DNA of 64,000 bases from positions 1 to 64,000 of the forward strand of contig NZ_JAPDDP010000037.1 of assembly GCF_027587195.1 (NCBI RefSeq), written 5' to 3'. Position 1 is the stretch's first letter. Every line of letters begins with the position of its first letter. The translations under genes were made by a program, and so were the position numbers. Under the pieces are notes generated by a model that saw only the letters and a program-made list of their open reading frames with translations, did not search any database and was not told where the DNA came from. Source of the stretch: Solirubrobacter phytolaccae. GTDB lineage: Bacteria > Actinomycetota > Thermoleophilia > Solirubrobacterales > Solirubrobacteraceae. This document shows positions 7,390 to 47,098 of this stretch, piece by piece.

Positions 7390-7958
7390 CCGCGTTCGGC
7401 GCGGGCGACCAGCAGCTCGCCCGCCCGGTGCACCGCCGGGGTGAAGCCGGACGTGATCAGCGCCTCGGTGAGCGAGCGGCGCGTGAAGAAGCGCACGTGC
7501 TGGCCCAGCGGGTCGAAGTGCGCCTCGAAGCGCGTCAGGGCGATCCAGGCGGCCTGTAGGCGCCCGTGGAAGGGCACGGTGAGGAGCAGGCGCCCGCCGG
7601 GCTTCAGGACCCGGCGCAGCTCGCTCAGCGCGAAGGCCACGTCGGGGATGTGCTCGAGCACCTCCGAGCACCAGACGAGGTCGAACTCGCCGTGGCCGAA
7701 CGGGATCGTGCCGTCGGTCTCGAGCAGGCGGACGTCGGCGCCGGTCGCGCGGGCGCGCTCCACGGCGTGCTCGGCGATCTCGACGCCCGCGCCGTCGTCG
7801 AGGAGCGCGAGGAAGCGGCCGGTGCCGCAGCCGTAGTCGAGGACGCGGTCGTCGGGACGGAGCTCGGCGGTGAGCAGCCCGCGTCGTTGCTCCCACGCGT
7901 ACGGCTCACCGTCCTCGTCGGGGGCGTCCGCCCAGAAGTCCTCGTAGAACTGCCGCAT
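7386..7958 (-). CDS. Class I SAM-dependent methyltransferase
   Basis: A 190-residue methyltransferase of the Methyltransf_11/23 type. It has the AdoMet-binding motif I VLDYGCGTGRFLALL near residues 39-53, an acidic post-I position (GVEIAEHAVERARATGADVRLLETD), motif II-like FDLVWCSEVLEHIPD, and motif III RVLKPGGRLLLTVPF. The small-molecule or glycan target is unknown. The ATG at 7958 overlaps the stop of the DUF4173 gene (TGATG), making it the last gene of the regulator-kinase-DUF4173 operon; a TTG nine bases upstream is possible. It is convergent with the O-antigen ligase gene and shares stop-codon bases with it. Confidence 0.85.
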   Translation of the reverse strand: MRQFYEDFWADAPDEDGEPYAWEQRRGLLTAELRPDDRVLDYGCGTGRFLALLDDGAGVEIAEHAVERARATGADVRLLETDGTIPFGHGEFDLVWCSEVLEHIPDVAFALSELRRVLKPGGRLLLTVPFHGRLQAAWIALTRFEAHFDPLGQHVRFFTRRSLTEALITSGFTPAVHRAGELLVARAERG

Positions 7959-9469
7959 CAGCCCCAATCATGGTCGACACGACACGTTGCGCCCGTGACG
8001 CCGGAGGCCCGCGCCTGGGAGCGAGCGAGGTTGAGGCCACCGAAGCCGTCGGCGGCGGGCCTCGGCGGGACGCACTCCATGCCCTTCAGCGCGGGGATCG
8101 CGTCGGCGGACAGCGTCCCGAGGTAGGTCCCGTCGACCTTGCCCGAGCGCTCGTACCGATCCACGTTCCACTCGGCGATCCGGCGGTCGGGATCGGCGAG
8201 CGCGAACGCGAGGAAGGACGCGACCGTGATCGTCAGCATCGCGCGCGGCAGCCAGCCGGCGCCGCGGGCGACCAGCACGAGCGTGAACAGCGCGCCGAGC
8301 CACAGCAGGATCGCGTGCGCGGCGAACCGCAGGCGCGTGAAGCCGTACGCGTCCTCGAGCAGCTGCAGGCGATGCAGGGCCGACACGAGCATGATCAGCG
8401 TGAGGACGCACAGGGCGGCGAGCAGCCCGCGCAGGAGCGTCCCGCCGTCGCGCGCCCAGCGGGCCGCGGCGCCGACGACCGCGAGCGTGAGCGCCGCCAC
8501 GACGACCAGCTGGCCGAACCCGCTGCGCGCGTACTCGGCGTAGGTGAGGCCGGCGGTGCGCTGCACGTAGCCGTCGCCGCCGAACAGGATCGTCAGCTGC
8601 AGCGCCACGAAGCCGCCCAGCAGCAGCACGAGCGCGCCGAGCGGGAGCGTCCACTCCGCCCGCGCGAGCGTCCGCCGCACCGGGACCGGCGCGGGCCGGA
8701 ACGGCGCGACCGCCACGAACAGCAGGCCACCGCCGAGCGCGAAGAAGAGCGCCGTCACGAGCGCGCGCGGGAGCGGCAGGTCGAGCGTCGGCGCCCACGT
8801 CTCGAGCAACTCCGCGAACGCGGCGTCAGCGGAGATGAGCAGCGGCACGAACACCGCGAGCAACGCGGCCGCGAGCACGGCGCCGCGCGCGGCCGGCCCG
8901 AACGTGGCGCCGCGCGCCGTGACCAGCGCGGCGAGGTACGTGCCCTGCGGGACACGCACCCACACCGCGGCGAGCCCGGCGCCGAGCTCACCCCAGCGCC
9001 GCCCGTGCGACGCCGCGAGCGAAGCCACGGCGACGCACACGAGGAGGCACGGGACCACGACCCACAGCGCCGCACGCAGGCTCGGCACGACCGCGAGCCC
9101 CGCGGCAAGCACCCACCACAGCGTCGTCCAGCGGTCGCGTCGCTCCGGCTCGGGCCGCGTCCGCAGGTCGGCGACCGGCACCGCGGCCGCCCGCCGCACC
9201 CGCGCGGCGATCACGCACAACGCGAGCAGCACGAGCGTGAGGCCGAGCCCCAGCGACGAGCCCACCACGAGCGCACCGGCGGCGACGGCCACGACGACGA
9301 CCCCGCGCGCCGCCCACGCGGGCACGGCGTCGAGCGCGACGGCGAGCCGCCCCGAACCTAAAGCGGGACTGTCCCTCTTTAGATTCGCCGGGCGCTCAGG
9401 GCGTGCGTCATCGCGACCGGTCTCTGCCGGCCGGAGCCCGCCGTCCGGCGGGCCTATGTGATCGGTCAT
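7958..9469 (-). CDS. DUF4173-type polytopic membrane protein
   Basis: A 503-residue membrane protein with roughly ten to twelve hydrophobic helices from residue 50 on. Features of the DUF4153/DUF4173 family include the conserved GLTYAEYARSGFGQL segment near residue 320, YGFTRLRF near 390 and NVDRYERSGKVD in the C-terminal extracytoplasmic tail. Function of the family is unknown. Its ATG overlaps the kinase stop in an ATGA, so it is co-expressed with a two-component system and may be its output or partner in envelope sensing. Residues 27-38 of the hydrophilic N-terminal tail (PANLKRDSPALG) are encoded by a 35-bp palindromic element also found in the MocR gene at 46.8 kb. Confidence 0.8.
   Translation of the reverse strand: MTDHIGPPDGGLRPAETGRDDARPERPANLKRDSPALGSGRLAVALDAVPAWAARGVVVVAVAAGALVVGSSLGLGLTLVLLALCVIAARVRRAAAVPVADLRTRPEPERRDRWTTLWWVLAAGLAVVPSLRAALWVVVPCLLVCVAVASLAASHGRRWGELGAGLAAVWVRVPQGTYLAALVTARGATFGPAARGAVLAAALLAVFVPLLISADAAFAELLETWAPTLDLPLPRALVTALFFALGGGLLFVAVAPFRPAPVPVRRTLARAEWTLPLGALVLLLGGFVALQLTILFGGDGYVQRTAGLTYAEYARSGFGQLVVVAALTLAVVGAAARWARDGGTLLRGLLAALCVLTLIMLVSALHRLQLLEDAYGFTRLRFAAHAILLWLGALFTLVLVARGAGWLPRAMLTITVASFLAFALADPDRRIAEWNVDRYERSGKVDGTYLGTLSADAIPALKGMECVPPRPAADGFGGLNLARSQARASGVTGATCRVDHDWG
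9353..9387. repeat. 35-bp palindromic element, copy 1 (inside the DUF4173 coding region)
   Basis: Imperfect palindrome: left arm 9353-9369 (CGAACCTAAAGCGGGAC), centre T at 9370, right arm 9371-9387 (GTCCCTCTTTAGATTCG). It differs from the perfect copy at 46796-46830 by two substitutions (9357 and 9376). Both copies are followed by CCGGG on the plus strand. On the minus strand it encodes ANLKRDSPAL in frame within the N-terminal tail of the DUF4173 protein. Confidence 0.85.
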
Positions 9470-10473
9470 CGCGGAAGCTCCACGACCACACGGCAGCCGT
9501 GTGGGTCCCGCTCGCGCACGGCGATCGTGCCGCCGTGCGCGTCGACGATCCAGCGGGCGATCGCCAGGCCGAGGCCCGTGCCGCCGTCGCGCGCCGCGCG
9601 CGCAGAGTCCGTTCGATGGAACCGCTCGAACACGCGCTCCGCCTCCTCAGGGGGGATTCCGGGGCCTTCGTCGGTGACTTCGATCGTGGTCACGCCGTCG
9701 GTCGCGGCGTGGGCGCTGAGCCAGATGCGGCCGTCCTCGGGCGAGTGGCGCACCGCGTTCTCCAGCAGGTTCGAGATCACCTGGTGCAGGCGCTCGGAGT
9801 CGCCGGTCGCGCGCAGGTCGCCGGGCTGCACGTCCACGCGCAGCCAGACGGGCTGCGCCATGTAGCGCTCGCCCAGCTCGCACTCGCGGGTCGCCTGCTC
9901 GAGCATCGGCCGGACCGGGAACGGCGCCGGCCGCAGCGCCAGCGCGCCGCTCTCCAGCCGCGAGAGGTCGAGCAGCTGCGCCACCAGCCGACCGAGCCGC
10001 TCGGTCTGCACCAACGCCGTGCGCAGCGCCGCCGGATCGACCGGCTCCACGCCGTCCACGAGGTTCTCCAGCAGCGCCTGCAGCGCGCCGATCGGCGTCC
10101 GCAGCTCGTGGGAGACGTTCGCCACCAGGTCTCGCCGCATGCGGTCCACGTCGGCCAGCTCGGCGGCCATGGCGTTGAACGCGCGCGCCAGCTCGCCGAC
10201 CTCGTCGCGAGAGGAGGCGGTGACGCGGCGCCCGTAGTCGCCGCGCGCCATCGCGCTCGCCGCCGCCGCCATCTCCCGCAGCGGCGAGGTCATCCCGCGC
10301 GCGAGCACCTGCACGATCGCCAGCGCGATCACCGCCGCCACGAACGTCCGCAGCTCGAGCGACCAGCCGAGCCGGAACCCGGCCGCGAGCACGCACACCG
10401 TGCCCGCGACCGTGGACACGATCACGACGCCGAACTTGACCTTGATCGAGCTCAGGCGGTCCAGCGGCCTCAT
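9466..10473 (-). CDS. Sensor histidine kinase (HAMP-HisKA-HATPase)
   Basis: A 335-residue membrane histidine kinase. Two hydrophobic helices (about 12-33 and 42-58) are separated by only a few residues, so there is almost no extracellular sensor loop. HAMP follows (about 60-112), then HisKA with the phospho-acceptor His122 in NVSHELRTP. The ATPase domain shows the N box LLENAVRHSPE, G1 DEGPGIPPEE, F box FERFHR and G2 GGTGLGLAIARWI. The ATG at 10473 overlaps the response-regulator stop (ATGA). The stop overlaps the DUF4173 start in the same way. With no real sensor loop, the signal may come through the membrane or through the DUF4173 partner (inference). Confidence 0.93.
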   Translation of the reverse strand: MRPLDRLSSIKVKFGVVIVSTVAGTVCVLAAGFRLGWSLELRTFVAAVIALAIVQVLARGMTSPLREMAAAASAMARGDYGRRVTASSRDEVGELARAFNAMAAELADVDRMRRDLVANVSHELRTPIGALQALLENLVDGVEPVDPAALRTALVQTERLGRLVAQLLDLSRLESGALALRPAPFPVRPMLEQATRECELGERYMAQPVWLRVDVQPGDLRATGDSERLHQVISNLLENAVRHSPEDGRIWLSAHAATDGVTTIEVTDEGPGIPPEEAERVFERFHRTDSARAARDGGTGLGLAIARWIVDAHGGTIAVRERDPHGCRVVVELPR

Positions 10474-20407: not shown

Positions 20408-20427
20408 GCGTTTCACGCGTGAAACGC
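20408..20427. promoter_or_regulatory. 20-bp perfect palindrome over a GTG start codon
   Basis: GCGTTTCACG followed directly by its reverse complement CGTGAAACGC. The GTG start (20419-20421) of the secreted repeat protein lies in the right half. As DNA it looks like a dimeric repressor operator. As RNA it would bury the initiation codon. Confidence 0.5.
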
Positions 20428-45715: not shown

Positions 45716-47098
45716 CTAAGCGGGGCACACGGCCTGCGCGAGCGCGGCGACCGTGCCGGGGATCGCGGCGCGCTGCAGCCGGCCGTAGCCGATGACCAGC
45801 GCGGGCTCGTCCTTCGGGGTGAGCCGGTAGGCGTTGAGGCCGTTGACGCGGATGCGGTTCATGGCCAGGCGCGCGACCACCACGTCCTCGTCGGTGCCGG
45901 GCGGCAGGCGCAGCAGCAGGTGCAGGCCCGCCGCGACGCCCTCGACGGTGCAGCCGTCGAGGGTCTGGAGCGCCGCGACCAGCTCGTCGCGGCGCTCGCG
46001 GTACTCGCGGCGGGTCCGGCGCAGGTGGCGGTCGACCTCGCCGCCCGCGAGCAGCCGCGCGTAGGCGCGGGCCGTGATGGCCGGGCCGCCCGAGTCCATC
46101 GCCCAGCGCTCGGCGGCGATCGCGGCGGTGAGGTCCGGCGGCGCGAGCACCCAGCCGAGGCGTAGCGCGGGCGCGAGCGTCTTCGACGCCGTCCCGAGGT
46201 AGACCACGCGATCGGGCGCGAGGCGCTGCAGCGTGCCGACCGGCGCGCGGTCGTAGCGGTACTCGGAGTCGTAGTCGTCCTCGATCACGACGCCACCCCA
46301 CGCGAGCAGCGCCCGCCGACGCTCCGGCGACAGGACCGCGCCCGTCGGGAACTGGTGCGCGGGCGTGACGAGCACGGCGTCGGCCTTCAGCCGTGACGGG
46401 TCGATCCCGTGCTCGTCGACCGGGACGCCGACCACGCCGAGCCCAGCGGAGCGGATCGTCGCCCACGCGTCGTCGAGCGACGGGTCCTCGACCGCGACCC
46501 GCGTCGCCCCGCGCTGCTTGAGCGCCCGGCACGTGAGCCACAGCCCCTGCGTGTAGCCCGACGTGATCACGAGGTCGTGGGGCCGCGCGACCGTCCCGCG
46601 CACCCGCACGAGGTAGGCCGCGAGCTCCCCGCGCAGCTCGTCGTCACCGCGCGGGTCGCCGTAGTCGAGCGCCGCGTCGGGCATCTCGGTGAGCGCGCGC
46701 CGCAGCGCCGCCGCCCACGCCCGCCGCGGGAACGCGGACAGGTCGGGCGCCGTCGCGGTCAGATCCAACCGAGCCGCCCCCACCTCCGGTCCTTGCGAAT
46801 CTAAAGCGGGACTGTCCCGCTTTAGATTCGCCGGGACGGCTCGGACGACCGGTGCGGCGCCGTGGCGCACCTCGATCCAGCCCTCCGCCGCGATCTGCGC
46901 GTAGGCCTCGCTCACGACGCCGCGCGAGACGTGCAGCGACTCGGCCAGCACGCGTGAGGCCGGCAGGCGCGTGCCCGGCGGCATCCCGCCGCCGGTGATC
47001 GCCGCGCAGATCGCGTCCTCGAGCTGGGCCCGCAGCGGCTCCGGGCGCGTGCGGTCCAGCGAGGCGAAGAGCTCCAAAGTGGCACGGTTCAGCGGCAT
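45716..47098 (-). CDS. MocR/PdxR-family regulator (GntR HTH + aminotransferase domain)
   Basis: A 460-residue regulator. Winged helix-turn-helix about 16-84 (PLRAQLEDAICAAITGG, LPASRVLAESLHVSRGVVSEAYAQIAAEGWIEVR), a linker, then a fold-type I aminotransferase domain (about 105-455) with PLP Lys306 in LGTASKTLAP and DDYDSEY. Members sense PLP, often controlling its synthesis. Residues 89-101 of the linker (PANLKRDSPALDS) are encoded by a 35-bp palindrome also found in the DUF4173 gene. The start at 47098 faces the SIS gene 47 bp away, a likely target since MocR genes commonly regulate their divergent neighbour. Confidence 0.93.
   Translation of the reverse strand: MPLNRATLELFASLDRTRPEPLRAQLEDAICAAITGGGMPPGTRLPASRVLAESLHVSRGVVSEAYAQIAAEGWIEVRHGAAPVVRAVPANLKRDSPALDSQGPEVGAARLDLTATAPDLSAFPRRAWAAALRRALTEMPDAALDYGDPRGDDELRGELAAYLVRVRGTVARPHDLVITSGYTQGLWLTCRALKQRGATRVAVEDPSLDDAWATIRSAGLGVVGVPVDEHGIDPSRLKADAVLVTPAHQFPTGAVLSPERRRALLAWGGVVIEDDYDSEYRYDRAPVGTLQRLAPDRVVYLGTASKTLAPALRLGWVLAPPDLTAAIAAERWAMDSGGPAITARAYARLLAGGEVDRHLRRTRREYRERRDELVAALQTLDGCTVEGVAAGLHLLLRLPPGTDEDVVVARLAMNRIRVNGLNAYRLTPKDEPALVIGYGRLQRAAIPGTVAALAQAVCPA
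46796..46830. repeat. 35-bp palindromic element, copy 2 (inside the MocR coding region)
   Basis: Perfect palindrome: arm CGAATCTAAAGCGGGAC (46796-46812), centre T at 46813, arm GTCCCGCTTTAGATTCG (46814-46830). On the minus strand it encodes ANLKRDSPAL in frame in the linker between the DNA-binding and aminotransferase domains. Thirty-three of 35 bases match the copy at 9353-9387. Confidence 0.9.

What the first reader, a model, noticed from the sequence alone, without database searches (positions are those of the whole stretch)
46796..46830. Perfect copy of the palindromic element within the MocR linker (copy 2)
Seventeen-base arms meet at a single central T with no mismatch. Drift normally breaks such a long palindrome inside coding sequence. 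Its perfection suggests a recent insertion or selection on the DNA/RNA hairpin rather than on the protein. The two base differences in copy 1 point to this one as closer to the active form. A hairpin in the mRNA between two domains could also pause translation or transcription.
Basis: partly seen in the sequence, partly recalled or inferred. Interest (0 to 1): 0.7.

Follow-up and report, generated by a model that had tools for sequence, protein, structure and literature searches.

The report
Transposase-linked palindrome inside MocR gene
The perfect 37-base palindrome in this regulator gene is one of about 26 copies of a small repeat in a soil actinobacterium (Solirubrobacter) that appears to be spread by a single-strand "REP-type" transposase; it sits in a tolerant protein linker, has been at that spot in related species for a long time, and is a new but recognisable member of a known kind of repeat.

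Summary
It is one of 26 dispersed copies (consensus TAAAGAGGGAC N GTCCCTCTTTA; reversed-pattern control 0). Four Solirubrobacter genomes with such a transposase carry 26-56 copies; two congeners without it carry none; a third without it has 11 eroding copies. Paralogous transposases are framed by palindromes with other cores, and relatives in many phyla by GGGGTCAG-type inverted repeats: the published TIRYT/TIRtron group. "Recent insertion" and "closer to the active form" are not supported: the MocR linker is occupied at the same place in several congeners, and this copy departs from consensus by a compensated pair. Copies are read in two frames, so no shared peptide is selected. Pausing was not tested. 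Verdict: new member of a known kind; the unusual part is that orthologous sites in sister species can carry different palindrome families.

The parts
46795..46831 (.). Perfect palindrome, arms 18 + central T; the element copy in question
46802..46824 (.). 23-bp family core TAAAG[A/C]GGGAC N GTCCC[T/G]CTTTA
45716..47098 (-). Host gene: MocR-family (PdxR-like, NF052282 367 bits against cut-off 320) regulator, 460 aa; palindrome read in frame as ANLKRDSPALDS
46853..47032 (-). GntR winged-helix domain (residues 23-82)
45878..46726 (-). Aminotransferase class I/II domain (residues 125-407)
9358..9382 (.). Copy 1 (25-bp core, one mismatched pair), in the N-terminal part (residues 89-97) of a DUF4153 ORF
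7958..9646 (-). Stop-to-stop ORF that holds copy 1; DUF4153 domain at residues 180-521

Best explanation
The palindrome is a non-autonomous, REP-like hairpin element whose spread depends on a Y1 HUH transposase of the RAYT/TIRYT kind encoded elsewhere in the same genome. Inferred mechanism, by analogy with IS200/IS605 and TnpA-REP: the enzyme recognises the folded single strand, cuts next to the hairpin foot with its tyrosine and moves single hairpins or two-hairpin units (about 75 bp centre to centre) to new places; insertions that fall in frame in tolerant interdomain linkers survive. The MocR copy is an old, inherited insertion in such a linker, possibly once a doublet. Its two arms have changed together since, by concerted replacement from other family members, template-switch correction between arms, or selection for the hairpin; these three are not separated here. 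Shown: copies, flanked transposase, co-distribution, shared orthologous sites, paired changes. Inferred: cutting chemistry, movement, direction of replacement.
For: 26 copies in the genome, 0 for the reversed pattern. Only two Y1 transposases in the genome: the one at C4:13803-14129 lies between copies at C4:13694 and C4:14311. In G004, G001 and G006 the type-A transposases are likewise flanked by type-A palindromes on both sides, while paralogues are flanked by other cores (GGGGTCTGACCCC, GGCCCAGGGCC, ACGTCCAGGACGT). HUH (NHxH) and Tyr residues invariant in 11 proteins; NCBIfam REP_Tyr_transpos is the only or best family, 57 bits. Copies: own 26, G001 55, G006 55, G004 56, G002 11, zero in the 36 other genomes. 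G002 lacks a type-A transposase and has 3 of 14 perfect cores against 18 of 27 here (Fisher p 0.009) and at least 40 of 55 in G006 (p 0.001). Sites empty in some congeners: L063 and L072 in G002, L072 in G004, L071 in G006. MocR site occupied in own, G004, G001/G006, and as a degenerate 75-bp doublet in G005. In 15 orthologous comparisons 6 core pairs changed on both sides, all still complementary, 0.8 expected. Copies in at least nine places inside ORFs, several between domains, in two different frames.
Against: No movement has been seen; no precise target rule was found. The NCBIfam match is below its cut-off (57 of 80 bits). The GTAG foot of classical REPs is absent. The 15 comparisons share species and repeat the same family variant in G002 (TGAAG..CTTCA), so the excess of paired changes is not six independent events; eleven one-sided core changes exist as well.
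Confidence: 0.85

Rival explanations
1. The palindrome is a binding site (operator or chromosome-organising site) for a host protein; the copies are its regulon and the compensated changes keep a symmetric site.
For: High sequence conservation of the 23-bp core and strict symmetry.
Against: Many copies lie inside unrelated ORFs rather than upstream of genes; the copy number goes from 56 to 0 between species of one genus; transposase genes are framed by it; species differ in which core occupies the same site.
Confidence: 0.06
2. Selection on an mRNA or DNA hairpin in this gene (transcriptional or translational pausing between the two domains of MocR) keeps the palindrome perfect.
For: Very stable hairpin in the mRNA; all three changed pairs between own and G004 within the palindrome are compensated; MocR paralogues carry such palindromes in or near the same linker.
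Against: The congeners G002 (sister species) and G003 have MocR without it; the same repeat lies in unrelated genes and intergenic places; copies are eroded in the species without the cognate transposase.
Confidence: 0.12
3. Recent insertion: perfect because young.
For: It is the longest perfect copy in the genome; copies of the family are absent at some orthologous sites, so turnover occurs.
Against: Occupied at the same position with the same left junction (CCGGCGAA) in G004 and G001/G006, and degenerate in G005; a re-insertion into the same place would have to be assumed.
Confidence: 0.1

Closest known systems
TIRYT / TIRtrons (TIR-associated tyrosine transposases; Di Nocera et al. 2013, PMC3733652; mostly subclass 2.1 in Quentin et al. 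2018, PMC6006769)
   Same: Y1 HUH transposase framed by inverted repeats with the GGGGWSAS motif (GGGGTCAG in type B, AGGGACAG in type A); TIRs as moderately abundant dispersed families, singly or in dimers; some TIRs self-complementary; same protein family as the GGGGTCAG-flanked relatives found here.
   Different: In Solirubrobacter the TIR is itself a perfect palindrome, several core families coexist, and the host is an actinobacterium; many copies sit in frame inside genes.
RAYT / REP / REPIN systems (Nunvar 2010, PMC2817692; Bertels and Rainey 2011, PMC3116915)
   Same: Transposase flanked by its own palindromes, dispersed cognate copies, copy number tied to presence of the transposase, doublets, palindromicity kept through paired changes.
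   Different: No GTAG/GTGG foot; perfect odd palindrome instead of imperfect hairpin; doublet spacers not conserved.
Rickettsia palindromic elements (RPE) and intragenic REPs
   Same: Palindromic repeats inserted in frame in unrelated genes.
   Different: Shorter, with an identifiable dedicated transposase, and not confined to coding regions (RPE size and lack of transposase from general knowledge).

Membership tests
RAYT (TnpA-REP) | HUH motif and catalytic Tyr in a Y1_Tnp domain | tested here: met
   PF01797 47.8 bits (cut-off 23); NHxH and Tyr columns invariant
RAYT (TnpA-REP) | Gene flanked by two cognate palindromes with dispersed copies | tested here: met
RAYT (TnpA-REP) | GTAG/GTGG tetranucleotide at the 5' foot of the hairpin | tested here: not met
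   feet are mostly GAAC, TTTC, AATC or GTCGC in the listed copies
RAYT (TnpA-REP) | NCBIfam REP_Tyr_transpos above curated cut-off | tested here: not met
   57.3 bits against 80 (type A); paralogues 63-77 bits
TIRYT / TIRtron | Transposase framed by terminal inverted repeats with GGGGWSAS | tested here: met
   type B GGGGTCAG exact, type A AGGGACAG one base off; 30 of 37 relatives share an inverted 11-mer, about 20 with GGGGTCA
TIRYT / TIRtron | C-terminal helix-turn-helix extension (subclass 2.1) | not tested
   type-A proteins are mostly 186-214 aa; a dedicated HTH search was not run
TIRYT / TIRtron | Transposition activity on its TIRs | not testable with these tools
   needs a biochemical or genetic assay
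Rickettsia palindromic element | Sequence family and host clade | tested here: not met
   actinobacterial genus, own family, own transposase

The most novel reading that the evidence does not exclude
At orthologous sites the whole palindrome core is overwritten in place by the family of another resident transposase (same gene position, same outer sequence, new core), so that palindrome populations are homogenised by conversion at fixed addresses instead of by new insertion.
Probability: 0.25. Interest if true: 0.65.

Novelty: new member of a known kind. Interest (0 to 1): 0.42.

Why it matters
It places the poorly studied TIRYT branch of REP-type transposases in an actinobacterial genus with several coexisting palindrome families, each next to its own transposase, and with a species that lacks one. 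The orthologous sites with swapped cores, and the copies kept in frame in protein linkers, make a natural experiment on whether such repeats move, are converted in place, or are selected as hairpins.

Tried and rejected
A regulon/operator reading was rejected on gene context and patchy species distribution. A shared selected peptide was rejected because copies are read in two frames (KRDSPSL and KEGxSLF). A conserved doublet spacer was sought and not found. Direct boundary definition from empty MocR linkers failed because the linker cannot be aligned; empty sites elsewhere gave no consistent target sequence. No PDB chain matches the transposase by sequence at E 0.01. Such palindromes were not found in MocR homologues of other genera. 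A literature search for Solirubrobacter with palindromes and transposases gave nothing specific; TIRYT is named in only two held papers.

Full report
What is there. The palindrome at 46795-46831 is perfect over 18+1+18 bases, one base pair longer than reported. Nothing else in the window exceeds arms of 10, and first-order Markov simulations of the window never exceeded 12. It is read in frame through the linker between the GntR and aminotransferase domains of a MocR/PdxR-like regulator.

A dispersed family. The genome (7.74 Mb) holds 26 matches to CTAAAGAGGGACNGTCCCTCTTTAG within three mismatches, none for the reversed control, plus one more degenerate copy next to another. The consensus has A-T at the sixth pair from the centre; the window copy has C-G there on both arms, copy 1 on one arm only. 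So the statement that this copy is nearest the active form does not hold, although it is the longest perfect copy. Outside the 23-bp core the feet vary among a few types (GAAC, TTTC, AATC, and a second palindrome GCGACANNTGTCGC).

The transposase. The genome has two Y1_Tnp proteins. One, at C4:13803-14129, lies between two copies of this palindrome, about 85 bp upstream and 180 bp downstream of the domain match; its C terminus is even encoded by the downstream copy. The same arrangement holds in G004 and twice in G001/G006. Paralogous transposases in the genus are framed by palindromes of other cores: GGGGTCTGACCCC, GGCCCAGGGCC, ACGTCCAGGACGT. The genus is most likely Solirubrobacter: the closest named carriers of the transposase are S. 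deserti and S. taibaiensis. Relatives in many phyla are framed by inverted repeats starting GGGGTCAG(GTCTT), which is the GGGGWSAS motif of the TIRtrons of Di Nocera et al. (PMC3733652), assigned mostly to subclass 2.1 by Quentin et al. (PMC6006769).

Distribution. Type-A copies: 26 here, 55 in G001, 55 in G006, 56 in G004, 11 in G002, none in two other congeners and in 34 genomes of the family and order. G002 has a transposase of another type only; its type-A copies are few and eroded (3 of 14 perfect cores, against 18 of 27 here). This suggests that perfection depends on continued presence of the transposase rather than on use by the host; it is one lineage, so it is suggestive only.

History of the MocR site. 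The palindrome stands at the same place after CCGGCGAA in G004 and G001/G006, the latter with a second copy 75 bp on; G005 has two degenerate palindromes 75 bp apart in the same linker; G002 and G003 have none. On the MocR tree own and G002 are sisters (support 0.97) inside a group with G004, G001/G006 and then G005. One old gain with loss in G002 is the shortest history. Against G004, three pairs within the 17-bp arms differ and all three are compensated. Two MocR paralogues, in G004 (type B) and G006 (type A doublet), carry such elements in or near the same linker, so this linker is a tolerant landing place.

Other sites. Copies inside ORFs sit in a fatty-acid synthase between domains, between the halves of a double ABC transporter, in the central region of an MFS transporter, in an EamA transporter, an S9 peptidase and others. 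At several orthologous sites sister species differ in the core family: the EamA site has type A here and in G002, GGGGTCAGACCCC in G004 and nothing in G006; the L041 site has type A here and in G004 and AAGGCCCTGGGCCTT in G002; the L062 site has type A in three species and a GGGGTC core in G004. Whether this is conversion in place or re-insertion at a preferred place is open, and it is the most interesting loose end.

Paired changes. Across 15 orthologous comparisons, 6 of 165 core pairs changed on both sides, all remaining complementary, with 0.8 expected if sides changed independently; 11 changed on one side. The comparisons are not independent. Selection for the hairpin, arm-to-arm template switching, and replacement by family members all predict this.

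Conclusion. The finding is a TIRYT/RAYT-associated palindromic element, ordinary in kind, unusual in host, in its perfect symmetry and in its orthologous core switches. The anatomy and co-distribution are shown here; the movement and its chemistry are inferred from the known enzymes.

Noticed in passing
L076 (G000:C149:21207-21530) with palindromes near L076:1399 and 1992-2016: Second Y1 transposase of the genome, framed by a different palindrome (TTAAAGGCCCAGGGCCTTTAA); neighbours look like a histidine kinase and a glycerate-kinase-like gene.
   Followed up: partly
L062 4390, L067 4431, L068 4653, L069 4677, L070 4464, L071 4558: A second palindrome AAACGCGACANNTGTCGC abuts many type-A copies on one side, and in G004 both sides of a type-B core; its owner is unknown.
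   Followed up: no
L145-L153 (G006): Type-A copies often come in pairs 75-78 bp apart (up to 99) with unrelated spacers, also inside MocR genes; REPIN-like spacing without a conserved spacer.
   Followed up: partly
L106/L147 (G006:C378:337486-337586) and L096 near 1748-1776 (G004:C46): MocR paralogues carry a type-A doublet and a type-B palindrome in or near the same interdomain linker, independent of the window's gene.
   Followed up: partly
L122 (G008) about 1317-1420: Transposase of another genus preceded by at least four tandem GGGGACTGTCCCC palindromes with short spacers.
   Followed up: no
window 20408-20427: Perfect palindrome GCGTTTCACGCGTGAAACGC, arms of 10, within chance range.
   Followed up: no
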